64,000 nt of DNA from Chloranthus sessilifolius (taxonomy: Eukaryota > Streptophyta > Magnoliopsida > Chloranthales > Chloranthaceae). Under the pieces are notes generated by a model. It saw only the letters and a program-made list of their open reading frames with translations. It had not been told where the DNA came from and searched no databases. The DNA lies in the NCBI GenBank assembly GCA_021018995.1, contig CM037588.1:138629725-138693724 (forward strand), written 5' to 3'. Position numbers and translations under genes: made by a program. Below are positions 5,431 through 62,793 of this stretch, piece after piece. Positions within the stretch are counted from its first letter, which is position 1; the number at the start of each line of letters is the position of its first letter.

Positions 5431-5462
5431 TTAGCTGAAATTATATACGAGTTGTGACATTT

Positions 5463-9445: not shown

Positions 9446-9617
9446 ATCGATCAAGGGCTCTTTGCAACCGACTGTTCGACCATCCATTCGCCATCTTTTT
9501 CAGCTATCCGACTTCCTTCTTACGTGTCTTTTGCTTTGATTTTGCTCGGCCGAATCGGTAAAACCTTTCATTTCTCTGTCTATTGAATTTTTTCTCAATC
9601 TTTTGCAAATTTTGACC

Positions 9618-11040
9618 ATGGGGCCGCGAACGAAGAACGCTTCGCGAAAGATCCCGACATCCCGAGCTCGTACACCCGTATCGCCCTCTGTTTTCGTTCC
9701 CCAACCAACCGTGCCACCCGTGGCATCGGTTTCGAACGTGGTACCACCTGTTCCACACCCCGTCCCGGCCCAAATCGAACGTGAAGTCCCCAAACCTTGG
9801 TGGGCTTCCAAAACTTTTCTACTCGAATACGTCTTTACTTCCTCGCTTTACGAGGACCGACCTGAAATGACTTGGGCCAAGGGTTATATTCAAAAGCTCG
9901 GGTTGAAGCCCTTGCTTGAACCATTCCATGACCATTATTGTCCCCGTATTGTGAGACTCTTTTTCCAAAACCTACGATGGGGTGATAGTCGGCATCGACT
10001 CGTCACGACCATCGATGGGTTCGAATACAAATTCAACCATTTTCACGTGGCGGTGGCACTTCAATGCCTGTCCGCTTACATTGAGAGCGCGGGTTTGGAT
10101 GCCCCGTATGTCAAGGAAGTCCCCTTCACTGACGTGGTCACCAAAATGACCCAAGGTCAGCATGGGAAGGGCCAATCCATTTCTCGAGCCCAATTACCCG
10201 ATAAATTGGGGATGCTTGATACATACATCAAGTGTGCACTTAACCCATTTTTGCACAAGTCCTCGCGGACTGGTGTGGTGTAACAGGCACTATTTTCGGC
10301 CTTTGAGAACCGTTGGTTCTCTATGGCCAACTTGGTCATAGATGGCATCATAAATGCCAATGACCTTATGTCGGAGAAGGTCAAATCTGGGGTTAAGAAA
10401 CAAATCCCCTACGCCCGCCTCATCACCAAGGTGGTAGAGCAATATGCCGCTCTACGCGAGGCATATATCTTGGCTCCTAACAAGCCACGCTTGGTCGATA
10501 ATACCAAAGTCTTTTACCTAAAAGACTGGACCAAGAGTTACAATTTCTTGGTTCGACGGCTCCCGGAGGAGGAGGAGAGCGCAGCTGAGCCCGTTTCGCT
10601 TGCCGTCGCCGAGGGTGCGGCACCTACCCAGCCTGCACTTGGAGAGAGGGAGGCCCCACGTGATCCACCACCTCTGCCTGAGGTGTCTACACCACCTGCC
10701 CCCACTACACCCCGCCGACCGCCCCGTCACACCCCATCACATCCCCCACCACCTTCCTCAGTCGACGTCGCAGCGATGCTTCGTGAGCTTGTAGAGGGTA
10801 ACCAGCGTATACAAAAGCGGTTGGATGGCATGGAGGCATTCCAAAGACAGATCCATCATTGTCTGGATTATCACGAGGGCATGCATGAGCTCGTCATGCA
10901 GCACTTATACGCCACGACGTCCACGCCGATGATCGCCCACGCTCGTCAGCACATGGTGGACCCTCGTGACTACCGCACACCACCACCTCGTCCTAGCAGA
11001 CCCACTCCTGACGAGGTCGGACCATCTGATGTCCCGGCAG
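9618..11040 (+). pseudogene. ORFX-B: best preserved plus-strand 3' ORF, putative plant transposon protein family
   Basis: The frame from ATG 9618 is open to the splice donor at 11040/11041 except for a single stop, TAA 10281-10283, where copy A has CAA. It encodes about 474 residues: basic N-terminus MGPRTKNASRK; a core with KPWWASKTF, RIVRLFFQNL and MLDTYIKCALNPF; then QQALFSAFENRWFS and IPYARLITKVVEQY; an acidic-proline linker; and a coiled coil (MLRELVEGNQRIQKRLDGM). It lies downstream of pol and 200 bp before the 3' LTR, the env position, yet has no signal peptide. The exon ends CGGCAG|GTAATT in phase 1. The acceptor box it would need is deleted from this LTR. Family assignment is by resemblance; function is unknown. 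Confidence 0.8.
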
Positions 11041-11235
11041 GTAATTTCTTGACTCTTCTCATAAATTTTGTTGATAATTTTATATGTTTATTCAATCTAT
11101 TTATTTACATTTCAATTCATGATCTGTCTATATATAGTTCATTCCTGCTCGACGTAGTACTGTTACTTTTCGTCACTGTAATAACTATGACCACCCTGAC
11201 ATTTTTGAGGATGAAAATCCCTAAGGGGGGGATAA

Positions 11236-12483
11236 TGTAACGATCTGAAAATTTTGAACAAGAAACTAACTATTTCGATCTACGTGCCTGACACAGAAAT
11301 CGAGACCAATTTAAAAATTTATAATTAATATTGGCTGATATAGGGTTGCACCATAGTGAGATGAGTTCGCACATATATTTTCGCTTAAGTCTGAGTTGTG
11401 TGACGTGTCAACGTAGCACGTTACGTTGTAGCGACAGATGCGCGCTTAACACCGGAACAAAGCTTAGGAATGAACTAAAATATCAGAGATATTTCAGGTC
11501 ATTAGCTTATAAGAGAAGGAATGGGACCTGGGAGTACATTTTCCTTCTTCTTCTTCTTCCTATTCTGTAAACCCTAGGTTTCTTTGTTGAGGGTTTTGTT
11601 GGTCCTTGAAGAACCATGAGCCGAGAACACTTAGGTTAGTGTTTATGTGACCTTGGAGTGTGAGAAATCGATGTTAGTACGTCGTCTCTGATTCGGCAAG
11701 AAGGTGTGCCCTCGCTACGCGTCAAAGCGGAGCCGCTAATTGCCAGTTCCGAGTCAAGGGGGTGACAAATCCCAAGTTCCAGATCTGAAACCCTCTTTCG
11801 GATCAATTTGCCAAAACCCCTAAAGGGCCCAACTAAAGGTGAGTTTGTGCATTTAAATTGGGCAAATGAGAGCCCTTATGTATGTGTGTGTGTATTAATG
11901 GTTGCAAGAAACCATTAGTGAAGATGGGTCAAAAATAGGGAAGTAGATGACCTCCATTAATGACAGAGTTTCTGTCATTATTGATCGATCAATGACAAGA
12001 TTGATCGATCAATACTTGGGTGATCGATCAATGAAGGCCATTGATCGATCAATCTGTATAGGACAAATAAGGGAACATAAACCTTGAAAATTCTAGAAGA
12101 TCAATGCTCGAAGGGCATTGATCGATCAATTAGTTGATTGATCGATCAATCCTGAGTATTGATTGATCACAGAGAGGGTGATCGATCAATGACTGGTGGT
12201 GATCGATCAATGAAGGCATTGATCGATCACTGGTGTGTATTGATCGATCAATGAAGGCATTGATCGATCAATCTATATAAATTTTAAATGTGAACAGAAG
12301 GTGGGAAAATTGAGATTTTAGGCTATTGATCGATCAATGAGGGTATTGATCGATCAATAGGAGGCATTGATCGATCAACCAAGCTGGTGATCAATCAATT
12401 TTGACTGTGCTAAAGTAAGGAGATCATCCAGAGTATGATCTTGATGGCATGGATTTTCGGGCGCGAAAAACCGGGCTGTCACA
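11236..12483 (+). mobile_element. 3' LTR of element B, internally shortened
   Basis: It starts TGTAACGATC after the polypurine tract AAGGGGGGGATAA and ends CCGGGCTGTCACA at 12483, the same terminus as the 3' LTR of F. It keeps the TATAAG (11508) and a palindrome array (11975-12405). It lacks the 1.2-kb region that in LTR A holds the ATATCCGTG motif, the splice-acceptor box and the acidic frame. The right junction falls inside integrase coding sequence of element C, so B probably inserted into C, but the left flank does not match and no duplication is seen. Confidence 0.85.
11975..12405. repeat. Palindrome array in 3' LTR of element B
   Basis: About 16 copies of TTGATCGATCAA and variants, collinear with the first part of the array in LTR A. 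Confidence 0.9.
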
Positions 12484-18244: not shown

Positions 18245-18425
18245 AATTCGATCATCGAATTCCAAATTCGATGGTCGAATTTTAATTCAATGCCCGAATT
18301 TTAATTCGAGCATCGAATTCACCCAAAAGTGCATCTATCATATTTGCAAAATTCGATCATCGAATTTAATTTCGATGCCCGAATTTTGAATTCAAGGGTC
18401 GAATTTGAATTCGACCCTTGAAGTT
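18245..18425. repeat. Quasi-palindrome cluster in LTR C
   Basis: About eight copies of TTCGAT-C-ATCGAA or variants (TTCGATGGTCGAA, TTCGATGCCCGAA, TTCGACCCTTGAA) with short spacers. It occupies the same LTR position as the arrays of A/B, E and F but uses a different sequence. Confidence 0.75.
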
Positions 18426-40155: not shown

Positions 40156-40620
40156 TAATATTTGGATAAGTCGCTTTTTTTCCGCACTTGTATTTGTCTT
40201 AATTTTATAATTTGATTTCCAATTAACCTACTTTTGAATATAATGGCCTCATGTACTATGTACTTTCCTGAATCGTACAAGCGGCTATTATAGAGTTAGT
40301 GTGACGACCCCTCTTTACATTTCCAAAATACCGGGAAGGACGGCTTGCCAACCCATTGATAAATCGATAAGCCGGAAATAATTCATACATATATCAGAGA
40401 ATAACAAAAGATCTTTATTTCTATGCCAAAAAGTAAGAAAAAATAACGGTTCAAATTCCATGTGAAAACACATGAACAAAAGAATCGAAACGAACCACCG
40501 ACGGTTCACAAAAAAATATATAATAATTACAAAATAAACAGGCCGGACGTACAAAGCCAAAACTAGTCTCTAAAAAAAAAACACCAGAAACAAAGCAGTA
40601 TCTTAAACAGGAAAGAATTC

Positions 40621-40745
40621 TTATGGAGGAATCTTAGACTCTTCTTTAGGAATGTAGTCCGGGTCACTCTCGTAACCCCGAGCCTCTTTATCTAAATCAG
40701 TACCTGTGACGTATAGTCAGGGTGAGCTAACAGTCTAAGCTCAGC
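40621..40745 (-). promoter_or_regulatory. Acceptor-like box and acidic terminal frame in LTR E
   Basis: The minus strand gives GAGCTTAGACTG, TTAGCTCACCC and GACTATACGTCACAG|GTAC with AG at 40705-40704. In phase 1 the next frame is fully open, GTDLDKEARGYESDPDYIP then KEESKIPP and stop at 40621. ESDP followed by YIP or similar recurs in A, C and F. Confidence 0.55.
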
Positions 40746-41639
40746 AGACGAAACTCAATTTATCACATTTTATCATAATAAGAGGTTTTCAAAGACTGAA
40801 ATTTAATCAGGTGTTGAGTTAAATTTCAATTCTAAAATAATAAGAGGATTTCAAAACAGGTATTCGTTTACAAAATTCCAATTCTAAAATAATTAGGTGT
40901 TGTGTTATGAATGGAAAATCAAACAAGTCTAGAGTTCATATGGTTTCAGATTCTAATTCATGCATGCTTCCTTATTTAAATGACTTAAGCTATAACTTAG
41001 AGTTCTTCTTAAGTTACTATATCATGAGAGCAGGAATAAAATCGATGGGAGCCCCTAACTAACCATCGTTGTTCAATGAACCCTTTTAAGGAGAAATGCA
41101 ACAAGCCCCTACGTTATGAGGGTATCTTGTGTCATATAGATACTCAATCAAATAGGTTCAGAGAAAAACTCACGGATATCTCGCCGTGTTAGTCACGGAT
41201 ATCCTGCCGCGTCGGTGGGAATTTGTTCACGAGAATCTTAAATCACATGCAAATTCTAATACATATCTCAGATGCAAATTCTAGTATATAATTCAGATGC
41301 AGAAATTCAGGAGTCAGGATTTAAATTCACATTCAAATGTATTCAGAAATCATGGTTCAAAGTTTATGCTAATCAAATTCATGTCAGGTTTAAATCATAT
41401 TCGGAGTTCATATAAAAAAAACAGATTCATATTATTTTAGACAAGAATGTAATAAATATTAAGGTTCCTCTACCTTAGACTGGATTCGATCACGGCTATT
41501 CAAAAATCCTCACTAGGGTTTTCCACACTTAACCTATATTAATTTAACACCACATATGCGTTAATAATGTTTAAAACCAACAGACAAAATTTTCCCAGAG
41601 TTCTTCGAAGGAAAAATTAAAAGAGCCAGAAACAGGGGA

Positions 41640-41815
41640 AATTCGAACGCTCGGTTTCATTTTCGAACGTTTGATTTCAAATTCGAACATTTGATTTTCA
41701 AATCGAATGTTCGATTTCTTCAGAAATCGAACCTGTCACTCAAGGCCAAAATCGATCGTTCGATTTCAAATTTGAACGTTCGATTTTAGATTCGAACGTT
41801 CGATTCCTTCAGATT
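41640..41815. repeat. Palindrome cluster in LTR E
   Basis: Seven or eight copies of the perfect 12-bp palindrome TCGAACGTTCGA or near variants. The same motif reappears upstream of ORFX of this element at 45045-45225. Confidence 0.85.
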
Positions 41816-42593
41816 TCTACTGTTTTCAATTTCTTTCCCATGACTTGATTTTCTCCAAATAAATCTCGATTTCTTTCCTAATTTCTTATACTAACTAGTC
41901 TAAATTCAGGTATAATTCAAGCAACCAGTAAACATAAAAGAGCTAACCTTTCAAGGGGGATTTATTGGTTTCCAATGATTCAATCCCACGCATCAGATTG
42001 AATCTTGCGAAGTCCAATGTCGGTAGATTCCAGAAAGTGCTCCACTTTACCTCAGATTACACCTCACCTCTTAATCATGCGGATAATGCATTAAATCTGA
42101 TCGGTTCCCATACTATCTACACTACTTACTTTCAATATTCTCAAACAAAATAGTGGTGGATTCCAATGCCTTTCTATTGTCACGATCACGAGAATGATCG
42201 TAAATTTAGGCGATCTTTGCGAGGAATACAAAACTCCATATTTCAGGTTCTCACGAGAGAAGGGAACTGAGAATTAATTCTTCCTTCTTCTCTTCTTATA
42301 AGACAAACATGCCAAAACAAATATCTTGATATTTACCCAAAATATCAAGATATTTAGTTTACAAATTCTGTCCACTTAATTTTAAGTTGGTCTTCGGTGC
42401 TGAGCACGCATACACGAGTCGGTGTACGAGTCATTGGCTAAAGGTCTACACCAAGTCTAAACCAACTTTCTTTTCACCAATAGCATTCATTCAAGTTTAC
42501 TTACTCATAACTTCCAAAGTTATTGTGTATTTTTTTTTGGGCACACATACCGAGGTAAACGTGTTCGGGTTCAAAAATTTTCAAGTTATTACA

Positions 42594-43524: not shown

Positions 43525-44816
43525 CTAATCCTCGTCATCATCAGCTGATCCAGCCTCCTGATCTTCCGCATCCCCTGCTCCAAAAGTAGAAGCACGGGTT
43601 GTAGAGGCACGGATATCAGCCATGCAGGTGGCGTAATCCATAGGATAAGCATGCTGCATCAAGTAGGTTAGCATGCCCTCATGGAACTCTAATTGACTGC
43701 GCATGGAGCTCAAGTGCTGAGTCAATGAGTGTATCTGCTGACTCATTGCAGTCATCTGCTTGGTGAACTCCGATAAGGTGAGCACATCAGCATGTGGGAC
43801 CTATGGCTGGATAGGTGGTGGCATCTAAACAGGTGCAGGTGGCTGGTCTATAGGCACTGACTACTCTGGCTCCGGTGCGACTTGTTCAACAGCTTCTTGA
43901 TCAACTGCTTCTTGATCAGCAGCTTCCTGGGGAGCCTTCAGTAACTACCTGTAGCTCCTCCTCCAATCTTTTATTTTATAAGTCTTGACATTGGCGGTGG
44001 ACTTGGGTTCATCATTCGAAATTTCATACTCATCCCGCCATCGTAATCCTCAATCATGAGAGAGATTAGCCGGGCATATGAAATTTCTTTTATAGGGGCC
44101 TTCCTCTTTTTACCCATTTTCTCACGAGCCGCGATTATACCTTTAAATACAACCTCTGGGGCACTAAACCAATTTTCTTGAAAAGCGGAAAATAAAGCTT
44201 TTTGAATGATACCCCGCCTTTTCGATATGTGCCCAAATGGGTATAGGCTACTCTTGAATATCACATCGAGCATCCACATTGTTTTCGCCAATTGGACTCA
44301 GGTTACCGATTGCCTGGACCCATGTAGCCCATGTGTCATTGCTGCGATGACATCATGATATCCTACTGGTTTGGGGTTTGGTGCCAACAAACTCATGGTT
44401 GGTGAATACTCGGTAGGACAAGCCATCGCCTCAGAGATATCATCGAGATCGAACTCGTAATCTCGCCCATCTATCGAAGTATATATCTTCTTCCCATCAC
44501 CCTGACGCATGTGTTAGTAAAACAGTCGTACCTATCGAGGGTAAAAATGGGTGTGAAAAGGTTGGAGTAGGGTCCCCAACTCAACTTTTTCTAAATAATC
44601 ACGCGCCCATTGCGTGGTTGCCTATTGTTCAAACAGCTTGAGGTCAAAGGATCACTCGTCGTCAAAATCCTTTTCACTCCACCACTCATTGGGTTGTTCA
44701 CGTGGTGGAGGAGGTGGTGTTGGTTGTGGTGGTGGTGGTTGACTAGAAGAACTGGCCTTTGATGCGGGCCGTTTCGAAGTAGGAATTTTGGTAGTCGCAT
44801 GCTTCTTGGGCCCCAT
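43525..44816 (-). pseudogene. ORFX-C of element E: 3' ORF, putative plant transposon protein family
   Basis: The minus-strand ATG at 44816 opens MGPKKHATTKIPTSKRP, a basic N-terminus parallel to MGPRTKN of A and B, followed by a Pro-rich stretch and NEWWSEKDF. The conserved core contains IAAMTHGLHG, TMWMLDVIFKSSLYPF, IIQKALFSAFQENWFS and EISYARLISLMIEDY. The C-terminal part holds a likely coiled coil (FTKQMTAMSQQIHSLTQHL) and ends in an acidic AGSADDDED with stop at 43525. At least six stops or frame breaks occur, several in the first third. Unlike A and B, an acidic tail is encoded directly, so splicing into the LTR may not be needed. It lies between pol and the 3' LTR. Similarity to A/B is moderate, implying long divergence. 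Confidence 0.75.
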
Positions 44817-45044: not shown

Positions 45045-45225
45045 GACAAAATCAATCATTCGATTTATAATTCGAACGTTCGATTTTGAATTCGAATGTT
45101 CGATTTTGAATTCAAATGTTTGTTTTTATAGAAAGAATGCTCAGAAGCCCGGCAATTTCGAACGCTCGATTTTGATTTCGACCGTTCGATTTTGAATTCG
45201 AACGTTCAATTTTGACAGAAATTGT
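45045..45225. repeat. Palindrome cluster of element E, upstream of ORFX
   Basis: About seven copies of TCGAACGTTCGA or variants lie between the ORFX start (44816) and the pol end (45574). The motif is the one found in this element's own LTR. The rest of the spacer, 45226-45573, shows nothing further. Confidence 0.85.
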
Positions 45226-49642: not shown

Positions 49643-50237
49643 TGTAATATCCCAAGAAAATCACGTTAAATAGTGACCTCGGGATTCGTGCCAGACCGTC
49701 ATAGGTTTGACCAAATAGGAGTTCAATAGTTGGCATAGGGTGCGATGAACGGATGAGATGTGAGAATTCGAGTGAATGTGTGGAGATTGATATAAATCTG
49801 AAGTCACATACACCTATTACGATGCATGTGCTAAATACACAAGTTTGAGGGGAGATAAAAGGGTTTAATAACCCTAAAATGAATGTTGGTTGTTGAGAGA
49901 GAGTAAAGAAGAGAGAGAGAGAGGAGTAAAGAAGGTGGGTGATTAAGGAGTTATTGCAACGGTTTGGAAGGGGGATTCAAGCACTCAACACCAGATTCGA
50001 CGCGAAGGATCCGCTAGAAGCAAAGCTGGAACCCTAGCCTTTCCAACCCCTTTGACCAAATCAATTGGAGATTGATAGAAGGTAAAATTCTTATAAATTA
50101 AATGCATAGATTGAAGGGTTTAAATTGTAGTTACAAATAGCTAAACTCATAGGATAATGGCTTAGAAAAGAAAGAGAAATCAGTTGAAAGAAGATTGAGA
50201 AGAACAACCCAAAAGGGGGCTGAATCTGGCCATTTTG

Positions 50238-50688
50238 ATTAATCGAAAGTGAGATTCGATTAATCAATTTTTGCCAAGAAGTTGAAAAGTCAAAAGACAC
50301 GATTTCGATTAATCGAACTGAGTTTCGATTAATCGACTTTGGATTTTGATTAATCGATTTTAGAGTCGATTAATCTACTGGGAACCTCCAGTGGATGGAG
50401 AAATGTAGTCTGGGGAAATCGACTAATCGAATTGGGATTTCGATTAGTCGAGTTTGAATTTTGATTAATCGAGTTCGATTCGATTAATCGATTTTGGGAA
50501 TTCGATTACTCGAATTGAGAATCGAATGGATAGAGTAGAGAATTTCGATTAATCGAATGGGAATCTCGATTAATCGATTTTGGGAATTGATTAATCGACT
50601 TTGAATTTCGATTAATCAATTTTGGGAATCGATTAATCAAATCATATTCGATTAATCGACTTTGGAGTTCGATTAATCGACTGTGCCA
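50238..50688. repeat. Palindrome array in 5' LTR of element F
   Basis: About 18 copies of the perfect palindrome TCGATTAATCGA and variants with short spacers. The same motif occurs upstream of ORFX-D and in the 3' LTR. Confidence 0.9.
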
Positions 50689-51672
50689 GTTTTGTTGAAT
50701 TTTTTTAGTTTGACTTCAAGATTCTTGGGGGGTCTTGGACCTTCCTTATTACATCTTTAGTGATGTATTGCATGTGTTATATTGTACCATAGGTGGTACG
50801 TGTGAGCTTGGGCACAAGGAGCCACGAGGGACCTTGATGCATGATCAAACAGAGACTTGAGGTAGGGAACACCTTGAACATGTACTTTATTTTGCAAGAG
50901 CATGTATGTAGTGATATATAATTCAATTCAAACTGTTTTTGTTTCTTAAGAGTTTGTGAAAAGTGTGCGTGTGTGACATCTAAAAGAGTAATCATAATGA
51001 GCCATCCCCAGGGGATGAGGAAGTAAAGAAATAAGAGCATTAGGTGTGATGCAAGTGAATGGATACATCCCAGGGATGTATCCAAGATTGAATTATGTCT
51101 GATAAGGCCTAACTGATATAAGATAGCACACTTACACGGTGAATAACTATATGTAAAGCATCTGATATTTTTATTATTTGAGGTTTAATAGGATACCCCA
51201 CAGACGTGGCGGGATACCCACGACTGACGCGGCAGGATATCCGTGACCGATATGGCGGCGAAACCGTAAGCCAGTGCGGAGGCTTATCCGTACATAGTAA
51301 GTACACCCCAGGGGTGTTGAATTGAGAAAAGTGAAATCCCGCCACCAATCCCCAGGGAAAAGGGGCTTGGGTACTATTTGTATTCCCAGGGAATACGTTT
51401 AAAATTGTCTATATAGATGACGATGAAGGGTATCTCATCGGGGCTCGATGCTATATTGCTCGGGGATTACTTAAGTTGAAAGGTTAAGTTTTGCTTTAGG
51501 CCTTTTCAGTGTCATTCATGAATAATTAAAAGACCTGAGTAAACTATCAGTAAAATATGATTCTTTTCAAATTTGTTTTTCATCGAATCGATGCGCATAG
51601 ACACATCATGCATAGCATATCATGGAATATATGTGAGTTATAATTTATATGTTCAATTGTGTTCTGTTCCCT

Positions 51673-51819
51673 ATTGAGCTAGGATGTAGCTCACCCTTTT
51701 GACTATATGTCGCAGGTCCATTGTTAGCAGTTGTTGACGCTTCAGGGGACGTTGACCCTGGTGAGTCAGACCGGGTACCTGGTGACGAGTTAGAGCCACC
51801 TCCAGAGGACTTCTTCTAG
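51673..51819 (+). promoter_or_regulatory. Acceptor-like box and acidic terminal frame, 5' LTR of F
   Basis: TTGAGCTAGGATG, TAGCTCACCC and GACTATATGTCGCAG|GTCC end at 51715/51716. The phase-1 frame is open to TAG 51817-51819 and encodes GPLLAVVDASGDVDPGESD then VPGDELEPPPEDFF. The box carries a plausible branch-point region (AGCTCAC) about 25 bases before the AG. Confidence 0.55.
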
Positions 51820-52171
51820 AGGACTATGTTGCGCAGCTTTGAGAGTTTTGTGAGATTATTGGCGCGGCTTGGTATGTCAAGCCTGATTTTTGGTTAAACA
51901 ATGTAATTAAAGTTTGGGATTATTCTTTTGGGAGAACCATCTGTGATGATTAACTATCATCGATGGTTCGGATCGGTTCTCCATTCATGCAGAGGCATGA
52001 GGGTAGAACTGCCTTTTGAAAGGTTTTAAAATGATATTTATTCTGCAATTCTAATTACTATTTTCAGTTCATTATTGTTGCTTGATATACCAGTGTTCCG
52101 TGCTTAGTCAAGGGGCACGGTCAAGATGATCGTGCTGATGGCACGGGTTTTGAGTCAATCCGTCATCACAG

Positions 52172-52260: not shown

Positions 52261-53638
52261 ATGCAGCCATCAATGCCATCTAGAGGAAGGGGCCGACCGA
52301 GGGGAGGCCAACAGAGAAGTTTGCGTAGTGGAGATGATTACATCTCTCCTACCAATCGAGTACCTTTAGGAGGTAGTGAGGCCCCAGGGGGCAGCAGTAG
52401 TAGACAACAGGAGGATGAGGATCGAGATCAAAGAGAACAGGAGAGAGTTAGAGAAAAACAAGAGGATAGAGAGGAGTGACAAAGGATGATGCATACCATG
52501 GAGACCATGGCAGCTGCCATGGCACAACAAGCCGCATCCTTTGTAGCTCATGCAGTGAGAGAACAGCAACCACCTACACCACCTGTAGGACCCGCACTGC
52601 CTGTGCCTTTATCCTTCACAGAGTTTAGGAGGATGAGACCTCCTTCATTTTCTGGGCAGGCATACACGTTGGCAGCAGAAAATTGGTTGATGGAAATGGA
52701 GAAATTTTTTAGCGTGCTGACATGCACGGAGGACGAGAGTGTAAGATGGGTAGCCTACATGCTAGACGGGGGAGCTGGGCCTTGGTGGAAGTCCGTGATA
52801 CGGAATAGGGCCCAGGAGACCCCAGAGTTGCCGTGGACTTGGGAGGAGTTTGTTGAGGAGTTCAACAAACAGTATTTTCCAGAGGTGGTAAGAAATCAAT
52901 TGAAAATTCAATTTTTGCAACTAGTGCAAGGGAGGATGACCGTGAGAGAGTATGGGGTTGAGTTTCTACGACTTGCCAGTTTTGCTCCGGATTACGTCGC
53001 TACCGACGTGATAAAGTCGAAGAGGTTTCAGCAAGGCTTGAAGCCTGAAGTTAGGGGAGGAGTAGCTCCATTTCAGTTAAGGACCTATGAAGAGGTCATG
53101 AGTAAAGCACTTGTGGTTGAAGAGGAGAATACAAATAGATATAGACAGAGAGAGCAACAAAGAGGACGCAATGATCAAGGAAGAACGGGGAACTACGAAC
53201 CGGTGAATAAAAAGCCGAGGTTCGTGGCCCAAAATCAGAGACCACAGCTCCAAGGGGGTTTTGGAAGACCGGCGCAGCAGCACCACCAACAGAGAGTTCC
53301 ACTACTTACGTCGGGGAGACCTTTACGCTATGAGAGCCCTGCCATGTCTACTGGCGCGACTGTCACACAGGGTTCTCGTACAGTTTCTTCCTCGCCTCGA
53401 GAGACTTGTGCCAAGTGTGGCAAGCCTCACAGGACCGTGGATTGCAGAGTGGGAACCAGGGGTTGTTTCCGATGTGGCAAGGTGGGCCACTTGATTAAAG
53501 ACAACCCCGTGGTTGATAAAGGAGAGACGGCTTCAGTTGCAGCGCCACGACCCATTCAAGCACAGAAGCCGGTCGTTCATGTGAGAGCCTATGCAGTCAC
53601 TGCTCAGGAAGCAGGGAACATGCACGACGTCAACCAAG
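52261..53638 (+). pseudogene. gag: Element F gag
   Basis: ATG 52261 opens MQPSMPSRGRGRPRGGQ, a basic RG-rich start, then an acidic-basic region. A TGA at 52477-52479 interrupts the frame; the rest is open to the intron. The capsid-like part shows PLSFTEFRRMRPP, EMEKFFSVLTC, PWWKSVIRNRAQE, EEFNKQYFPEVV and GRMTVREYGVEF. The zinc knuckles are C-AK-C-GKP-H-RTVD-C and C-FR-C-GKVG-H-LIKD-N, the last Cys being Asn. The product would form the particle and bind RNA. Only one stop and one lost ligand make this the best gag in the window. Confidence 0.9.
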
Positions 53639-53803
53639 GTGAGATTCTTTTAAATAAAGTAATTCCGATTTCATTAAAATTTTAGATAGAGAAGGTGATT
53701 TATTAGGAGTTGTGTAAATTCTTAGTCTAGACACTAAAATTATATGTGAATTAGGGGTGTAAATTGATGTGTAAATTATTATATGTATGTATGTATACTA
53801 TAG
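53639..53803 (+). other. Probable 165-bp intron between gag and protease of element F
   Basis: Codons VNQ end CAAG|GTGAGATT, and after a T-rich stretch TATACTATAG|GTACTT resumes the frame as GTLTIYEKG. Phase 1 at both sides; same codon as in C and E. Confidence 0.65.
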
Positions 53804-56800
53804 GTACTTTAACTATATATGAGAAGGGATGCTTCATAGGATATGATGCTAGAGTGTTGATAGACCCAGGGTCTACCCACTCATTCGTCACTCCACGTTT
53901 TGCCAAGAGGATGAAGATTGTTCCAGAGGCGTTGGACTTTGTCCTGTCTGTGTCTATTCCGACTGGAGAGTTAGTGGACATAGAGTTAGCTTGCAAATCC
54001 ATCATCGTAGCAATTCGAGATCGGGATGTGCATGAATTGGAGGCAAAGTTGATACTGTTGGACATGCAAGGCTTTGATGTGATCCTTGGCATGGATTGAT
54101 TGGCGTAGCATTGTGCAATAGTCGATTGTAAGAACAAGGTAGTCATTTTCAGACCCAACACAAGAAGATCATTTCGATTTCAAGGAGTGAGGTCATCACC
54201 TATGCCACTGATCTCAGCAGTAAGGGCCGAGCGAATGATCAGGAAGGGTTGCAGTGGGTACTTGGCTTTCTTAAAGGAGGACAAGGAAGAAAAGAATGTC
54301 ATCTCTGAGATAGCAGTTGTGCGAGACTTCGCCGACGTCTTTCCAGAAGAGTTGCCTGGATTACCTCTAGAGAGAGAAGTAGAATTTACCATTGACTTAG
54401 CACCGGGAACAGAGCCTGTTTTAAAAGCACCATATAGAATGGCTCCTGCTGAGTTGAAGGAGTTGAAAGAGCAACTACAAGAGCTCATGGATAAGGGGTT
54501 TGTCAGACCGAGCGTGTCTCCGTGGGGAGCATCGGTCTTGTTTGTTAAGAAGAAAGATGGGTCAATGCATCTGTGCATTGACTATCGACAACTGAACAAA
54601 CTCACTGTTAAGAACCGTTACCCTTTGCCTAGAATCGACGATCTATTTGATCAACTGCAAGGAGCGAAGTACTTTTCCAAGATCGACCTGAGATCTGGAT
54701 ACCATCAGTTGAGAGTCAAGGCAGAGGACATCCAGAAGACAACCTTCAGGACACGGTATGGACACTATGAATTCCTTGTAATGCCGTTCGGGTTGACGAA
54801 TGCTCCAGCGTCGTTTATGGATCTGATGAATCGAGTGTTTAAACCACACTTGGACTCCTGCGTAGTAGTATTCGTTGATGATATTTTGATGTACTCCAAA
54901 TCCAAGACAAAACACGAAGAACATTTGAGGATTGCTCTACAGATGCTACATGAACACCAATTGTACGCCAAACTCAGCAAATGTGAGTTTTGGTTGGAAG
55001 AGGTTAGCTTTTTGGGACATGTTGTCTCAAAGCACGGTGTCACGGTAGATCCAGCAAAGATAGAAGCAGTGGTTAAATGGGAGCAATCAAAGACAGTGAC
55101 CGATGTCCGAAGTTTTCTTGGGTTAGTAGGCTATTATCGACGTTTCGTCGAGGGGTTTTCAAGGATTTCGGGACCTCTCACGAAGCTGGCACGAAAGGAT
55201 TCAAGATTTGAGTAGAGTGAGGCATGCGAGAAGAGTTTTCAAGAACTCAAGATGTGACTCACTTCAGCTCCAGTGCTAGCGATTCCTTCAGGCAGTGGAG
55301 GATATGCGGTGTACAGCGATGCGTCATACAATGGTTTGGGTTGCGTGCTCAACCAACACAAGAAGGTGATAGCTTACGGATCAAGACAGCTGAAAGAACA
55401 CGAGAAAAATTACCCGACTCATGACTTGGAGCTAGCAGCAGTCATTTTCGCGCTGAAGATTTGGAGACACTACTTGTATGGGGAGACGTTTGAAATTTTC
55501 ACTGATCATAAGAGCCTCCGATACCTATTTACACAGAAAGAGCTCAACATGAGACAGCGCAGATGGATGGAGTTCCTCAAGGATTATGATTGTTCTATAC
55601 AGTACCATCTAGGCAAGGCTAACGTGGTAGCTGACGCTTTGGGTCGGAAGAGTTCAGCTCAGTTAGCTTGTTTGATTTTGGGTATGCACCGGTGGAAATT
55701 ATTGGAAGACCTGGCACTCTATGATGCAAACATTGAGTCGAAAGATACAGGATCCTTTTTAGCTAACATATCAGTGAGACCAGTAATATTTGAGCAGATC
55801 CATGATTTACAGATGAAGGATCCGATGTTAACAAAGATTCATCAAGATGTGATTGAAGGCATCAGGCCAGACTTCTCAGTGAAAGAAGATGGTTCTTTAT
55901 TGTTTAAGGGCCGTCTTTGCATTCCGGACAATGCCGAACTAAGACGAACGATTCTTGATGAAGCCCACAAGTCAAATTATGCTATCCACCCTGGTAGCAC
56001 CAAAATGTACCAAGACTTGAAAAAGAACTATTGGTGGAGAGGTTTGAAACAAGACGTGGCCGAATACGTGTCACGGTGTTTGACCTGTCAGCAGGTAAAG
56101 ATTGACCATAGGCATCCTGCTGGACTATTGCAGCCTTTACCAATACCAGAATGGAAGTGAGAATCAATCTCGATGGATTTCATTGTTGGATTACCACGTA
56201 CTGCCAAGAAATACAATGCCATTTGGGTAGTGGTCGATCGATTGACCAAGTCAGCACACTTCTTGCCTTACAACACGATGTACGGCGGGAGGCGGCACAA
56301 CTATATATGAAGGAGATTGTCCGTTTGCATGGGATTCCGAGTAGCATTGTTTCGGACTGTGACCCATTGTATACATCAAAGTTCTGGAAGAAATTTCAAG
56401 AAGGAATGGGAACACGACTGGATTTAAGTACGGCATTCCATCCGCAAACTGACGGACAGACTGAGAGGGTCAACCAGATTATCGAGGACATGCTTAGGGC
56501 ATGTATGTTAGAGCTACAAGGATCATGGGATCAGCACCTACCTTTGATTGAGTTCGCATATAACAACAGTTTTCAGACGAGCATTGGGATGGCACCATAT
56601 GAAGCACTCTACGGACGGCGATGTAGATCGCCCATTAATTGGGAAGAAACGGGTGAGAAGTTTATTTTGGGACCCGAATTACTTGAAGATAATGCAGCCT
56701 ATGTTCGTATGATAAGGGCAAACCTTAAAATGGCACAAAGCAAACAGAGAAGCTACGCCGATATCAAGCGGACGAGCGTAGACTACAAGGTGGGTGAACA

Positions 56801-57215
56801 CGTGTTTGTGAAAGTATCACCTATGAAAGGGGTGATGAGAATTAGAAAGAGAGGAAAGCTAAGTCCCTGCTACCTTGGACCATTTGAGGTTTTGGGACAA
56901 GTAGGGGAAGTTGCTTACCGCATTGGATTGCCACCGTTGTTTGATTCAGTACACAATGTCTTCCACGTATCAATGCTTAGGAAGTACATTAACGACCCTG
57001 ACCACTTGTTGAGCGGTCAAGAGTTAGAGATGCATGAGGACATGACCATGATTGAAGAGCCGGTGGAGATTTTGGATTGAAAGAAACAAGTACTACGAAC
57101 GAAAGTGATTCCACTCGTACTTGTCAGATGGAACCATCATACGGCCGAGGAAGCTACATGGGAAAGAGAGGCTGATGTGAAGGAACAATATCCAGCCTTG
57201 TTTCCAACCACTTGA
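53804..57215 (+). pseudogene. pol: Element F pol: protease-RT-RNase H-integrase-chromodomain
   Basis: This is the most readable pol here. Protease: VLIDPGSTHSFV (about 53856) and VILGMD. RT (54187-55215): [23 protein letters not shown] and FVDD near 54870. RNase [13 protein letters not shown] and [11 protein letters not shown], with MRQRRWMEF following. Integrase: H..H in [11 protein letters not shown], then CLTCQQVK; catalytic-core pieces [11 protein letters not shown] and FHPQTDGQTERVNQ; GPF module CYLGPFEVLGQVG; C-terminal chromodomain-like LVRWNHHTAEEATWE, ending at 57213. Stops are TGA 54097, TAG 54106, TAG 55213, TGA 55255, TGA 56158 and TGA 57078. There is a frameshift near 56280. No interruption occurs between integrase core and GPF module, unlike B, C and E. 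Clade Tekay/Del-like is inferred from the chromodomain end. Confidence 0.92.
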
Positions 57216-57437
57216 GAATCAATTGTACCCCCGCAAGTGTGTTTGTGGATTTTGACAAAACTTGTAATCCAATAAAATTTTTGATCAAAGTATGACGAAG
57301 ATATCATAAATTACCAAGACAAATAAAAAATTACCATGATGATGTGTTTTGTAGAACCAAGGATCACTTGATATCATAAATTACCAAGACAAATCAAATA
57401 GACAGAGAAATTTGAAAACCAACAGAATTTGATCAAA

Positions 57438-58190
57438 ATCGATTAATCGATTTTCAAATCGATTAATCGATTTGGAAATTTGATTAATCGATTTTGTTCT
57501 AATAATCGTGGCATGCGCCGGATATTTGAGAACGAATAAGGATTAGAAAAATGACAGAGTGAAATTTCGATTGATCGATATTGGTTTCGATCAATCGATT
57601 TAGAATTTTGATTAATCGAATTGAGGGTTCGATTAGTCAAACAAATTGAGAATTTTAAAAGAACTTAGAGGGATTTTATGAAATTTCGATTAATCGAGGA
57701 GAAATTCGATTAATCGATTTATGGTTTCGATTAATCGAACTGGAAGTTCGATTAATCGATTAACTTAAGGAAATTAGCAAATTTGAAGTATGAGAAACGA
57801 TTTCGATTGATCGATGTGGAATTCAATTAATCGATTTGAGATTTCGATTAATCGAATCATAGTTCGACTAATCGAGTAACTTAAAGAATCCTGAAAACTT
57901 TGGAAGGGACTGCACGATTTCGATTAATCGAAGTGAATTTCGATTAATCGATTTTAGAATTTTGATTAATCGAAATGGATTTCGATTAATCGACTGGCTC
58001 GCTCCAGTGAGCTCTAAAACTTGAAATTTTAAACGGATACTATTTCGATTAATCGAGATGGTTTCGACTAATCGATTTTGAGTTTTAACTAATCGATTTT
58101 GGAAATCGATTAATCGATTTCGCGCGGCTTAACCTAATTTTAAAATTCGATTAATCGACTTTAGAAATCGATTAATCGAGCCGGAGCCTA
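57438..58190. repeat. Palindrome array of element F, upstream of ORFX
   Basis: Nearly 30 copies of TCGATTAATCGA or variants (TTGATTAATCGA, TCGACTAATCGA, TCGATTGATCGA) fill the region between pol and ORFX-D. It is the densest array in the window, and the motif is the same as in the LTRs of this element. Confidence 0.92.
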
Positions 58191-58200
58191 TATATATGAA
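58187..58200 (+). promoter_or_regulatory. Possible own promoter (TATA box) of ORFX-D
   Basis: CCTATATATATG lies immediately after the last palindrome and about 235 bp before the ORFX start codon (58430). It suggests that ORFX may have its own transcript driven from the palindrome array. No other TATA-like sequence is as well placed in copies A, B or C. Confidence 0.4.
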
Positions 58201-58429
58201 TCGATGAAATTTTTTTCATTTCATCCGAAATCATTTGGGATTTTTGCATTTGGGCGCCATTGCCTCTCCTTCTTCCTTCAACCATCCGAGCTAGGGTTTT
58301 GGATCTCCTTCGTCGATTTTGGACCAAGGACGCTAACTTTTACCACGAAACCTACAGTAAACCCTAGTTCAACTCTTTTTCTTCAAATTCGAGCCATAAA
58401 AAACCCTAATTTCTTGAATTTTCACCATA

Positions 58430-60017
58430 ATGCCGCAGAAAACCCGATTGTCTTCGAAGAAGGTGACCTCTAAACTCTCGGTTCGACATAAGAACGCCGC
58501 ACCACCACCACCTACCCCATCGCCGGTGAGGACTCCATCACCGTCGGCATCGGAGACCACCTCCGGTTCGACGAGCGCATCCTCGCGCGAGTCTTCACGC
58601 AAATCGACACCCATGCCGCCACCACCCACTAACGTACTACAACCCAATGAGTGGTGGGAGGCGAAGACCTTTGAGGTCGAATACATCATCGACCCAACCC
58701 TCTTTACGAATCCCGATGTACCGGGCGAGACCCAATGGGCTCGCAACTACCTCCAAAATGCCGGTCTCTGCAACCTTCTCAAACCAATTCGGGGTTCCTA
58801 CTACCCTAGATTAGTTAGATTGTTTGGCCCGCCAGCACGTGGTTTTGACCAAGATAGAGGGTCGAGACTACACCATTACCCGTCGCCACATACACGAGGT
58901 ACTCGAGTGTTACCTCGATTTCACCCCAGAGACCACCTTCTTCCCACCCTTTGAAGAGGAAGTTAAATTTGAAGAGATTATGATCCGCATGACTAACGGG
59001 AAAAAGGGGTCAGGATCCTCCATCAAGAGGGTCGACCTTCCCCACTACATGTGGATGCTTGATTCCATAATCAAGTGTAACCTCTACCCGTTGCGGCACG
59101 ACACCGAGCGGATTGAGGTAGTGCAACAGGCACTATATGCAGCCTTTTGTGGCCGGTGGTTCGACGCGACCATGTTCATCCTAGAGGGGATAAAGTATAT
59201 AAAAGGAAAACTAATGAAGGGCAACTTGAGGCCCAAGGAGAAAATGCCGTATGCTCGGTTGATCTCGAGCATGTTGGAGTATTACTCTAACACTCCTGAG
59301 TATGCGGTATCGCCCCACGAGGTGCGGGCGACGGACCGAGTGAAGACATTTTCGAAGTCTTCATGGAGCCGTAGTTATAACTTGTTGAAGAGGACCCTAC
59401 CGGCTCCGGGTCCAGTTCCAACAGCAGCAGCAGCGGCAGTAGCACCACCACCACCCCCACCACCACATCAGGACCCACCCGTGGGTGGGGTTCACCCGGC
59501 TGAGCCTTCAGCGGAGGGGGCACCCTCTCATACCGCCGCTTCACCGACACATTGACCCATTCCGATTTCCTACACCCACATCATCCTACCGCCGGCGCGC
59601 AGCTCAATCCGGCCCTACCATCGAGGAGGTGTTGGCACGTATGGAGGCCAACAACGAACGGATGAACCGGAGGATGGACTTCCTTATGTTCCATACGCTC
59701 CGCTACATCTACCCGTCCGACTATCAGCGATACTTAGCTCAGGAGGAGGAGTGGACCACGGGACGGATCGCCTTCCATAGGGGTCCCGTCTTCCGTCCGA
59801 CCACTGCGACTACCGGCTATTTGGTACTTCCCTTACGCACCCGGTTTACGCCGACCAGAGGCATGATCCACACTGCTACCTCGACCACCCACCGGCTCCA
59901 GCAGACCCGCCCTTTGCCCCATAGCTCCTCGGATGGGCGACTGCTCCACCACCCGACCTGCCTGACGAGGGGACGGCATGAGCCTTGTGCTCTCATCTTC
60001 TTTTTGAGTGGTTTCCT
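58430..60017 (+). pseudogene. ORFX-D of element F: 3' ORF, putative plant transposon protein family
   Basis: ATG 58430 starts MPQKTRLSSKKVTSKLSV, a basic Ser/Pro-rich N-terminus. PNEWWEAKTFEVEYI and YYPRLVRLF follow, then a frameshift near 58830. The core (58824-59400) is otherwise open: KIEGRDYTITRRHIHEVLE, MIRMTNGKKGSGSSI, YMWMLDSIIKCNLYPL, VVQQALYAAFCGRWFDA and MPYARLISSMLEYY. A Pro/Ala-rich linker, a second frameshift near 59540 and a coiled-coil-like MEANNERMNRRMDFLMF come next. A third frame break near 59820 damages the tail. A strong donor-like CTT|GTAAGTATG lies at 60017/60018. The compatible LTR acceptor is at 62326/62327. It is homologous to ORFX-A, -B and -C and sits in the same place. 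Confidence 0.78.
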
Positions 60018-60269: not shown

Positions 60270-62788
60270 TATAATATCCCGAAAAAATTATGTTAAACAA
60301 TGACCTCGGGATCCATGCCCGACCGGCATAGGTTTGACCAAATAGGAGTTCAATAGTTGGCATAGGGTGCGATGAACGGATGAGATGTGAGAATTCGAGT
60401 GAATGTGTGGAGATTGATATAAATCCGAAGTCACATACACCTATTACGGTGCATGTGCTAAATACACAAGTTTGAGGGGAGATAAAAGGGTTTAATAACC
60501 CTAAAATCAATGTTGGTTGTTGAGAGAGAGTAAAGAAGAGAGAGAGAGAGAGGAGTAAAGAAGGTGGGTGATTAAGGAGTTATTGCAACGGTTTGGAAGG
60601 AGGATTCAAGCACTTAACACCGGATTCAACGCGAAGGATCCGCTAGAAGCAAAGCTGGAACCCTAGCCTTTCCAACCCCTTTGACCAAATCAATTGGAGA
60701 TTGATTGAAGGTAAAATTCTTGTAAATTAAATGCATAGATTGAAGGGTTTAAATTATAGTTAGAAATAGCTACAATCATAGGATAATGGCTTAGAAAAGA
60801 AAGAGAAATCAGTTGGAAGAAGATTGGGAAGAACAGCCCAAAAGGGCGCTGAATCTGGCCATTTTGATTAATCGAAAGTGAGATTCGATTAATCGATTTT
60901 TGCCAAGAAGTTGAAAAGTCAAAAGACACGATTTCGATTAATCGAACTGAGTTTCGATTAATCGACTTTGGATTTTGATTAATCGATTTTAGAGTCGATT
61001 AATCGACTGGGAACCTCCAGTGGATGGAGAAATGTAGTCTGGGGAAATCGACTAATCGAATTGGGATTTCGATTAGTCGATTTTAAATTTCGATTAATCG
61101 AGTTCGGTTCGATTAATTGATTTTGGGAATTCGATTACTCGAATTGAGATTCGAATGGATAGAGTAGAGAGTTTTGATTAATCGAATTGGGATTCGATTA
61201 ATCGAATGGGAATCTCGATTAATCGAATTTGGGAATCGATTAATCGACTTTGAGTTTCGATTAATCGATTTTGGGAATCGATTAATCGAATCATATTCGA
61301 TTAATCGACTTTGGAGTTCAATTAATCGACTGTGTCAGTTTTGTTGAATTTTTTTAGTTTGACTTCAAGATTCTCGGGGGGTCTTGGACCTTCCTTATTG
61401 CATCTTTAGTGATGTATTGCATGTATTATATTGTACCATAGGTGGTACGTGTGAGCTTGAGCACAAGGAGCCACAGGGACCTTGATGCATGATCAAACAG
61501 AGACTTGAGGTAAGAGCATGTATGTAGTGATATAGAATTCAATTCAAACTATTTTTGTTTCTTAAGAGTTTATAAAAAGTGTGCGTGTGTGACATATAAA
61601 AGAGTAATCATAATGAGCCATCCCCAGGGGATGAGGAAGTAAAGAAATAAGAGCATCAGGTGTGATGCAAGTGAATGGATACATCCCACGGATGTATCCA
61701 AGATTGAATTATGTCTGGTAAGGCCTAACTGATATAAGATAGCACACTTACACGGTGAATAACTATATGTAAAGCATCTGATATTTTTATTATTTGAGGT
61801 TTAATAGGATACCCCACAGACGTGGCGGGATACCCACGACTGACGCGGCAGGATATCCGTGACCGATATGGCGGCGAAACCGTAAGCCAGTGCGGAGGCT
61901 TATCCGTACATAGTAAGTACACCCCAGGGGTGTTGAATTGAGAAAAGTGAAACTCCGCCATCAATTCACAGGGGAAAGGGGCTTGGGTACTATTTGTATT
62001 CCCAGGAAATACGTTTAAAACTGTCTATATAGATGACGATGAAGGGTATCTCATCGGGGCTCGATGCTATATTGCTCGGGGATTACTTAAGTTGAAAAGG
62101 TTAAGTTTTGCTTTAGGCCTTTTCAGTGTCATTCATGAATAATTAAAAGACCTGAGTAAACTACCAGTAAAATATGATTCTTTTCAACTGTTTTCATCAG
62201 TAACTGCATAGACACATCATGCATGGCATATCATGGAATATATGTGAGTTATAATTTATATGTTCAATTGTGTTCTATTCCCTATTGAGCTAGGATGTAG
62301 CTCACCCTTTTGACTATACGTCACAGGTCCATTGTTTGCAGCTGTTGACGCTTCAGGGGGCGTTGACCCTGGTGAGTCAGACCCGGTACCTGCTGACGAG
62401 TTAGAGCCACCTCCAGAGGACTTCTTCTAGAGGACTCTGTTGCGCAGCTTTGAGAGTTTTGTGAGATTATTGGCGCGGCTTGGTATGTCAAGCCTGATTT
62501 TTGGTTAAACAATGTAATTAAAGTTTGAGATTATTCTTTTAGGCGAACCATCTGTGATGATTAACTATCATCGATGGTTCAGATCGGTTCTCCATTCATG
62601 CAGAGGCATGAGGGTAGAACTGTCTTTTGAAAGGTTTTAAAATGATATTTATTCTGCAATTCTAATTACTATTTTCAGTTCATTATTGTTGCTTGATATA
62701 CTAGTGTTCCGTGCTTAGTCAAGGGGCACGGTCAAGATGATCGTGCTGATGGCACGGGTTTCAGGGTGCCGAAATCCGGGCTGTCACA
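60270..62788 (+). mobile_element. 3' LTR of element F
   Basis: A 2519-bp LTR, collinear with the 5' copy, whose initial TG has become TA. It ends CCGGGCTGTCACA and is followed by the AGCTC duplication. The palindrome array is at 60863-61330. The acceptor-like box ends TCACAG at 62326, and its phase-1 frame (GPLFAAVDASGGVDPGESD, then PVPADELEPPPEDFF) is open to TAG 62428-62430. Confidence 0.92.
60863..61330. repeat. Palindrome array in 3' LTR of element F
   Basis: About 19 copies of TCGATTAATCGA and variants, collinear with 50238-50688. Confidence 0.9.
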
Positions 62789-62793
62789 AGCTC

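What the first reader, a model, noticed from the sequence alone, without database searches (positions are those of the whole stretch)
57438..60017. Candidate self-regulatory system: 3' ORF plus family-specific palindrome arrays in chromovirus-like LTR elements
Seen: A, B, E and F each carry an ORFX between pol and the 3' LTR. Immediately upstream of it lies an array of a 12-bp palindrome that also occurs in the same element's LTR. Known: VANC proteins of VANDAL DNA transposons bind short motifs repeated in their own element and counteract silencing, with the motif changing together with the protein. Inference: ORFX may be an analogous sequence-specific activator or anti-silencing factor in an LTR retrotransposon, with dimers reading a palindrome. 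I know of no such system described for Ty3/gypsy elements.
Basis: partly seen in the sequence, partly recalled or inferred. Interest (0 to 1): 0.88.

Follow-up and report, generated by a model that had tools for sequence, protein, structure and literature searches.

The report
Palindrome arrays beside retrotransposon's extra gene
Several related plant jumping genes in this stretch each carry their own version of a short mirror-image DNA word, repeated both in their end repeats and in front of an extra gene of unknown function, which suggests a built-in control switch resembling one described in a different class of plant jumping genes.

Summary
Chromodomain Ty3/gypsy elements A, B, E and F each have a sense ORF ("ORFX") between pol and the 3' LTR, a palindrome array 163-255 bp upstream of it, and the same palindrome arrayed in an LTR. 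Motifs are family-specific: A/B TTGATCGATCAA, E TCGAACGTTCGA (degenerate), F TCGATTAATCGA. I found a fourth, TTCGANNNTCGAA, in element C's LTR. Palindromes are better conserved than spacers between A and B, not between F's two LTRs. ORFX was under purifying selection (A-B dN/dS 0.10-0.16) yet is only 36-42% identical between families; it matches Pfam PF20167 only far below cut-off. No ORFX here is intact. The layout has a precedent: Ty1/copia Sireviruses carry palindromic motifs in the LTR and upstream of their env-like gene (PMC2829016). What I did not find in print is the layout in a Ty3/gypsy chromovirus with these half-sites and motif switching. Best reading: dimer-binding sites linking the LTR and ORFX promoters. 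Whether ORFX, a host factor or small RNAs read them is undecided; the VANC-like idea is untested. The own-genome search did not complete, so protein-motif co-evolution rests on three families.

The parts
57439..58179 (.). Element F, internal palindrome array (TCGATTAATCGA), between pol and ORFX
   Evidence: 23 sites with at most 1 mismatch, 14 exact
58430..59980 (+). Element F, ORFX, broken: pieces in three frames (58418-58954, 58815-59555, 59443-60195); end approximate
   Evidence: sub-threshold PF20167 match of the middle piece; homologous to A, B, E
58189..58198 (+). TATA-like stretch between the F array and the ORFX ATG (candidate internal promoter)
   Evidence: sequence and TATA scan
49643..52170 (+). 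Element F 5' LTR; palindrome array at 50235-50680
60270..62788 (+). Element F 3' LTR; palindrome array at 60864-61329
   Evidence: AGCTC on both sides of F
52480..57217 (+). Element F gag-pol with integrase and chromodomain remnant
   Evidence: Pfam Retrotrans_gag, RVT_1, RT_RNaseH, Integrase_H2C2, SH3_Tf2-1; chromodomain-like peptide read by eye
1..378 (.). Element A internal array (TTGATCGATCAA), runs off the left edge
   Evidence: 13 sites with at most 1 mismatch, 8 exact
543..1970 (+). Element A ORFX, two in-frame stops; end approximate
2164..4612 (+). Element A 3' LTR (right end uncertain); array 2899-3533
   Evidence: 22 sites with at most 1 mismatch, 16 exact
9076..9454 (.). Element B internal array (TTGATCGATCAA)
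   Evidence: 13 sites with at most 1 mismatch, 8 exact
9618..11042 (+). Element B ORFX, one in-frame stop; end approximate
   Evidence: very weak PF20167 match of the N-terminal piece (12.2 bits, E 0.16)
11236..12483 (+). Element B 3' LTR (shorter than A's); array 11981-12378. A 5' LTR fragment lies at 4613-5434 with 3 sites
45072..45209 (.). Element E (minus strand) internal array (TCGAACGTTCGA, degenerate)
   Evidence: 5 sites with at most 1 mismatch, 1 exact
43540..44816 (-). Element E ORFX, several stops and a frame change; end approximate
40300..42593 (-). Element E 3' LTR (inner end uncertain); array 41643-41803
   Evidence: 5 sites with at most 1 mismatch, 7 with at most 2, 1 exact
18247..18422 (.). 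Fourth motif, TTCGANNNTCGAA, in the 5' LTR of element C (minus strand, LTR start about 19200); not in the finding's list
   Evidence: 7 sites with at most 1 mismatch in the ten fixed bases; sequence

Best explanation
In this lineage of chromodomain Ty3/gypsy elements, arrays of a short dyad-symmetric DNA site serve two promoters of the same element: the LTR, which drives genomic RNA, and an internal promoter in front of ORFX. A dimeric DNA-binding factor reads the sites side by side, roughly every two helical turns. Shown: the arrays, their two positions, family specificity, conservation of sites over spacers between A and B, and past purifying selection on ORFX between A and B. Inferred: that the sites act as DNA, that they are promoter elements, that ORFX binds them, and the sign of the effect.
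For: (1) The same motif occurs in an LTR and in front of ORFX in 4 of 4 ORFX elements (three motif families), and both places switch together between families. (2) With palindromes masked, blastn (E up to 1e-3) finds no similarity between internal and LTR arrays in 4 of 4 elements; in E only 88 and 74 bases were left, so power is low there. (3) Between A and B, aligned site bases are 140 of 145 and 187 of 196 identical against 161 of 187 and 213 of 247 for spacers (rotation test 2 of 331 and 3 of 442); between F's two LTRs, identical at insertion, sites are 210 of 218 and spacers 240 of 247. (4) Spacing is 18-23 bp in 98 of 127 neighbour pairs under 120 bp. (5) LTR arrays start 593-791 bp into the LTR in 6 of 6 LTRs; internal arrays end 163, 164, 250 and 255 bp before the ORFX ATG. 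(6) ORFX A-B dN/dS is 0.12, 0.10 and 0.16 in three stretches; the core stretch in the two shifted frames gives 1.1 and 2.5. (7) ORFX has a basic first 30 residues in B, E and F (K+R 6-7, D+E 0; A has 4 and 1), and hand-picked C-terminal segments are heptad-periodic in A, B and E (P 0.002-0.007), not in F (P 0.35); a weak hint of a nuclear oligomer. (8) Within A/B sites 22 of 22 single mismatches break the dyad pairing, which fits protein reading better than RNA pairing.
Against: No binding, expression or methylation data. Only three ORFX families are seen, and pol co-diverges (RT 72-74% identity), so correlation does not single out ORFX. ORFX has no recognised DNA-binding domain: only a sub-threshold PF20167 match (best 19.9 bits against a cut-off of 45). 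Structure models are too poor to use (pLDDT 47 and 39). A second LTR-pair control goes the other way: in the small stretch shared by B's two LTRs, sites are 36 of 36 and spacers 40 of 45 identical (Fisher P 0.06). Many columns are gaps and are left out of these counts (A-B internal: 42 site and 66 spacer columns; A-B LTR: 36 and 55). A TATA-like match lies between pol and ORFX in F and E but not in A or B; in the LTRs TATA matches lie on both sides of the array in F, inside it in A and B, and after it in E, so start sites are unknown. In Sireviruses the LTR palindromes persist without the env-like gene in 4 of 13 elements, and six ENV-bearing Sireviruses lack the motif.
Confidence: 0.4

Rival explanations
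1. Same cis-regulatory arrays, but read by a host transcription factor. ORFX is a separate env-like or accessory protein that merely shares the promoter module with the LTR.
For: In Ty1/copia Sireviruses palindromic motifs sit in the LTR and upstream of ENV, and LTR copies persist in the 4 of 13 elements without ENV (PMC2829016). All four motifs here share TCGA- or TTGA-type half-sites, as one host factor family might read. A PF20167-matching 3' ORF is reported for a sunflower Athila element (PMC11728184, passages); sense 3' ORFs are usually discussed as env-like (PMC7264820, passages).
Against: Within one host genome four families use four different sites, including a changed half-site distance in C. 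A fixed host factor does not obviously favour that.
Confidence: 0.33
2. The palindromes act as RNA: transcripts fold into hairpins that shape genomic RNA structure or feed host small-RNA silencing.
For: F's and B's internal arrays fold far better than shuffles as RNA (z -9.0 with 20 shuffles, z -8.9 with 100). In maize Sireviruses small RNAs are reported to map in excess to LTR palindrome clusters (Bousios 2016, not held; seen only as cited in PMC10760457 and PMC5311732 passages).
Against: Any array of palindromes folds well. Within-site changes are not compensated in A/B (0 of 22) and flanks do not covary, except one F offset (P 0.006, one of twelve tests). F's 15 of 30 and E's 4 of 8 G-U-compatible single mismatches are also what CpG decay gives. 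Small-RNA targeting may be a consequence rather than the function.
Confidence: 0.15
3. ORFX is a VANC-like anti-silencing factor: it binds its own element's repeats and removes methylation from the LTR and internal region. (A narrower form of the best explanation; the odds overlap.)
For: Works-like resemblance: a short motif arrayed in non-coding parts of its own element, differing between related elements beside a diverged ORF; VANC targets described in PMC5735166 (passages) and PMC10398659 (abstract).
Against: Pfam scans of ORFX pieces point to no VANC-like family, but I did not compare ORFX with VANC sequences. VANC21's site YAGTATTAY is not palindromic. No methylation data here. Arrays in these broken copies show CpG transitions above other changes (F 0.077 per CpG base against 0.035 per other base, 65 sites; E 0.115 against 0.077, 13 sites), as methylated copies would.
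Confidence: 0.18
4. The arrays are neutral tandem duplications from slippage, with no function.
For: Tandem Repeats Finder reports these arrays, mostly with periods of 19-42 bp; [quoted passage not shown] Spacers of internal and LTR arrays keep slight likeness in B and F (2 of 300 shuffles each).
Against: The palindrome, far more than the spacer, is what copies and the two places share; sites outlast spacers between A and B; every one of the four motifs is dyad-symmetric.
Confidence: 0.05

Closest known systems
Sirevirus repeated motifs (RM), Ty1/copia, Bousios et al. 2010 (PMC2829016)
   Same: High-copy, family-specific, dyad-symmetric motif in the LTR and again just upstream of a sense 3' env-like ORF (section 9 read whole).
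   Different: Ty1/copia not Ty3/gypsy; CGG-CCG core (except Tnd-1) not TCGA/TTGA half-sites; LTR motifs start 200-400 bp into the LTR there, 593-791 bp here; the 3' ORF is called ENV there.
VANDAL transposons and VANC proteins (PMC5735166 passages, PMC10398659 abstract)
   Same: Short motifs arrayed in the element's own non-coding DNA, differing between relatives that encode diverged proteins.
   Different: DNA transposon; VANC21 motif YAGTATTAY not palindromic; binding and hypomethylation were shown there, nothing is shown here.
PF20167 Transposase_32 / Athila 3' additional ORF (PMC11728184, passages)
   Same: Sense ORF between pol and 3' LTR; sub-threshold PF20167 match in F (profile 38-150) and a very weak one in B (2-58).
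   Different: Scores far below the curated cut-off; carried by chromodomain elements, not Athila. Tekay additional ORFs in that paper are 5' ones.
Retand elements with TRP28 antisense ORF and tandem arrays (PMC11963269, passages)
   Same: Extra ORF plus family-specific repeat arrays between pol and 3' LTR; a DNA-binding regulatory role is suggested by its authors.
   Different: Antisense ORF, non-chromovirus; no shared LTR palindrome mentioned in the passages seen.

Membership tests
Sirevirus-type RM architecture | Dyad-symmetric motif in high copy in the LTR | tested here: met
   6 of 6 LTRs of 5 elements, 5-22 sites with at most 1 mismatch each
Sirevirus-type RM architecture | Most LTR copies in the upper half of the LTR | tested here: inconclusive
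   Yes for F's two LTRs (offsets 593-1060 of about 2520); A's runs past the middle of a 2449-bp LTR of uncertain end; B's LTR is shortened and its array lies in the second half; C and E LTR lengths uncertain
Sirevirus-type RM architecture | Further copies just upstream of a sense 3' ORF | tested here: met
   4 of 4 elements with a visible ORFX
Sirevirus-type RM architecture | CGG-CCG core | tested here: not met
   Motifs are TTGATCGATCAA, TTCGANNNTCGAA, TCGAACGTTCGA, TCGATTAATCGA
Sirevirus (Ty1/copia genus) | Ty1/copia gene order and domains | tested here: not met
   Ty3-type capsid, RT-RNase H-integrase order, Tf2-1 SH3 and chromodomain
VANDAL/VANC system | Element is a Mu-like DNA transposon | tested here: not met
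   gag, RT, RNase H, integrase, LTRs
VANDAL/VANC system | Own-element short motif arrays that differ between relatives | tested here: met
VANDAL/VANC system | Motif changes together with the encoded protein | tested here: inconclusive
   Only three ORFX families; A and B share the motif and 80-89% ORFX identity, other pairs 36-42%, but pol also diverges
VANDAL/VANC system | Protein is a VANC homologue | not tested
   No VANC sequence was compared
VANDAL/VANC system | Protein binds motif and removes methylation | not testable with these tools
   needs binding and methylation assays
PF20167 Transposase_32 | Score above Pfam's curated cut-off (45 bits) | tested here: not met
   Best 19.9 bits, E 0.00074. 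Pieces matching at all: 1 of 10 (E up to 1), 2 of 7 and 1 of 6 (E up to 10)
Chromovirus (Ty3/gypsy with chromodomain) | Chromodomain after the integrase | tested here: met
   Pfam Chromo in B, E 1.8e-6; similar peptides read by eye in E and F
Tekay/Del clade | RT phylogeny placing it in the clade | not tested
   No named reference RT sequences were compared; the clade is my guess from long LTRs and chromodomain

The most novel reading that the evidence does not exclude
ORFX is a retrotransposon-encoded, sequence-specific DNA-binding factor that recognises its own family's palindrome in the LTR and in its own promoter, activating or de-silencing only its own family. Its specificity switches, including half-site spacing, separate co-resident families in one genome: a VANC-like system in an LTR retrotransposon.
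Probability: 0.22. Interest if true: 0.9.

Novelty: new variant of a known kind. Interest (0 to 1): 0.62.

Why it matters
The roles of extra ORFs of plant LTR retrotransposons are described as unknown (PMC7264820, PMC11728184, passages). Here an ORF under selection sits beside a ready-made candidate target that differs cleanly between families in one genome, so reader-site matching could be tested directly by pairing each protein with each family's array. If the arrays prove to be shared control switches, similar architecture would exist in Ty1/copia Sireviruses and a Ty3/gypsy lineage with different half-sites, pointing to convergent self-regulation or a common way of exploiting host factors.

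Tried and rejected
Protein relatives: two searches of the large protein collection, with F's middle ORFX piece and with an alignment of B, A, F and E pieces, gave no hit (0 of 1474 candidates at E 0.001; 0 of 852 at E 0.01). Viral contigs: 5 scans. Integrase and ORFX queries matched patterns in 1 and 2 stretches, none confirmed as a relative; the A/B and E paired-site patterns gave 0; the F pattern gave one contig, L001, where the best tblastn match of the window proteins has E 0.087, so it was set aside.

Structure: two AlphaFold2 jobs on ORFX pieces gave mean pLDDT 46.9 and 39.2. No fold search was run because matches would be meaningless.

Own genome: the genome search 'own' did not complete (14 calls), so I could not collect intact copies or test co-evolution in number.

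Considered and set aside: the cluster of CGATACGTATCG-like sites at 26.2-26.5 kb as a further family, because I recognised no LTR or ORFX around it. The A/B mismatch tally is not used: its 3-mismatch limit picked up overlapping shifted matches (97 'sites').
Full report
What is there. The window holds nested chromodomain Ty3/gypsy elements. F (49643-62788, + strand) has two LTRs about 94% identical, gag, RT, RNase H, integrase with a chromodomain remnant, a sense ORF (ORFX) and AGCTC on both sides as a 5-bp target duplication. It is inserted in the gag of E, which lies on the minus strand. A and B (+ strand) and C (minus strand) are further, more damaged relatives. ORFX of A, B, E and F are homologous by tblastn. 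None is intact.

The arrays. Palindrome sites (at most 1 mismatch) number 62 (F motif), 66 (A/B motif) and 10 (E motif) in the window, against shuffle means of 0.30, 0.44 and 0.09. In each of the four ORFX elements the same motif is found both in an LTR and between pol and ORFX. With at most 1 mismatch the region-by-motif table has one off-diagonal site in 10 array regions; allowing 2 mismatches brings 1-4 cross matches to several regions. Element C, whose 3' part is not visible, has a fourth motif, TTCGANNNTCGAA, in its LTR: 7 sites with at most 1 mismatch, while 3 such sites also occur in 21 kb without array. The motifs are variants of a TCGA/TTGA half-site around a 3- or 4-bp centre. For A/B the nearly invariant part is TGATCGATCA; its outer bases vary. 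E is poorly preserved, with 2 exact sites.

Layout. Neighbouring sites are 18-23 bp apart in 98 of 127 pairs under 120 bp (sites with at most 1 mismatch, 2 for E). The angular concentration for periods of 10 to 11 bp is 0.64-0.74, rising towards 11, so I claim only a loose two-turn spacing, not exact helical phasing. LTR arrays start 593-791 bp into the LTR in 6 of 6 LTRs. Internal arrays end 164 (A), 163 (B), 250 (F) and 255 (E) bp before the ORFX ATG. F and E have TATA-like matches between pol and ORFX, A and B none; in the LTRs such matches lie on both sides of the array in F, inside it in A and B, after it in E. No start site is known, so calling either place a promoter is inference.

Is the motif selected? 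Between A and B, aligned site bases are 140 of 145 and 187 of 196 identical, and spacers 161 of 187 and 213 of 247 (internal and LTR). Rotating the site mask reaches the difference in 2 of 331 and 3 of 442 rotations. Two controls use LTR pairs that were identical when inserted. F's pair shows no excess: sites 210 of 218, spacers 240 of 247. The short stretch shared by B's pair does lean the same way as A-B: sites 36 of 36, spacers 40 of 45 (Fisher P 0.06). Gapped columns are left out (A-B internal: 42 site, 66 spacer; A-B LTR: 36 and 55; F pair: 10 and 12), and repeats are hard to align, so the effect is moderate evidence, not proof. With palindromes masked, blastn (E up to 1e-3) finds no similarity between internal and LTR arrays in any of the four elements, with little sequence left to compare in E. 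A spacer comparison shows slight residual likeness in B and F (2 of 300 shuffles each), less in A (21 of 300) and none in E (104 of 300). So the two arrays of an element share their palindrome and little else.

ORFX. A-B dN/dS is 0.12, 0.10 and 0.16 over 124, 177 and 171 codons; the core stretch read in the two shifted frames gives 1.1 and 2.5. It was a selected protein in that lineage. Between families its core is 36-42% identical (three pairs), against 72-74% for RT (three pairs), 66-73% for RNase H (three), 71-75% for integrase (two) and 45% for gag (one). It is the fastest-diverging protein measured, though gag is close. Pfam gives only a sub-threshold match to PF20167 in F (19.9 bits, cut-off 45) and a very weak one in B (12.2 bits, E 0.16); most pieces give none. 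A basic N-terminus (B, E, F; weaker in A) and a heptad-like C-terminal segment (A, B, E; not F; segments picked by hand) are weak hints of a nuclear oligomer. Structure prediction failed to give usable models.

DNA or RNA? As RNA, F's and B's internal arrays fold with z about -9, which any palindrome array would do. Within A/B sites 22 of 22 single changes break dyad pairing and flanks do not covary. In F 15 of 30 and in E 4 of 8 single changes are G-U compatible, which CpG decay also explains, and one flank offset of twelve tested is nominally significant. This leans to DNA but does not exclude RNA roles, and Sirevirus palindromes are reported small-RNA hotspots (as cited in PMC10760457 and PMC5311732, passages).

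Comparison with print. The decisive paper is Bousios et al. 2010, PMC2829016 (section 9 read whole; other passages): 13 Sireviruses have palindromic repeated motifs in the LTR; the 9 with ENV also have them in the linker, nearly all upstream of ENV; the 4 without ENV lack the internal copies but keep the LTR ones; six further ENV-bearing Sireviruses lack the motif. The layout is therefore known in Ty1/copia. PMC11728184 (passages) reports a PF20167-matching 3' ORF in a sunflower Athila and 5' ORFs in Tekay; PMC12844716 (passage) sets VANC beside the Tekay ORF and leaves an epigenetic role open. PMC4029996, on Del LTRs, has no occurrence of 'palindrom' or 'tandem' (find); PMC3605345 none of 'palindrom', 'tandem' or 'env' (find); PMC6317226 none of 'palindrom', 'env-like' or 'additional ORF' (find). 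My ten paper searches showed no title or abstract opening that describes this layout in a Ty3/gypsy chromovirus. Most lists were capped (20 of 89, 20 of 161, 12 of 84, 12 of 14, 8 of 46, 12 of 35 and 10 of 69 shown), and the library lacks most subscription papers, so this is not proof of absence.

Verdict. A real, non-random architecture with family-specific motifs and signs of selection; a Ty3/gypsy counterpart of the Sirevirus layout. I put 0.4 on ORFX as self-regulatory reader, 0.33 on a host factor, 0.18 on the narrower VANC-like anti-silencing role (which overlaps the first), 0.15 on an RNA role, 0.05 on no function.

Noticed in passing
8410-8488 (B), 45993-46064 (E, minus), from 12551 downwards (C, minus): Integrase of B and E is interrupted at the same place by 72-79 bases starting with an intron-like CAG|GT and ending in AG; C has the same start (CAGGTAAGT) but is cut off by B. 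F has none. Whether it is an intron is open.
   Followed up: partly
49643-62788 within E: F is inserted in E's gag (E gag parts at 49148-49643 and 62753-63457, minus) with AGCTC on both sides.
   Followed up: yes
26200-26530: Cluster of CGATACGTATCG and ATCGTCCGAT-like words near an AT-rich stretch, with no LTR or retroelement ORF recognised around it.
   Followed up: no
L001 4980-5700: A viral contig without clear relatives of the window proteins carries three TCGATTAATCGA (5021, 5046, 5683), the first two 25 bp apart inside a longer palindrome TGTCGATTAATCGACA.
   Followed up: partly
24710-25228: ORF matching DUF1223 (PF06764, E 2e-40), apparently a host gene or fragment.
   Followed up: no
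19357-19904: Two tandem copies of about 288 bp, 87% identical, next to the start of C's 5' LTR.
   Followed up: no
37834-38028: 29-bp tandem repeats, consensus TGAATCGAACTGGCACGACGGCATATCCG.
   Followed up: no
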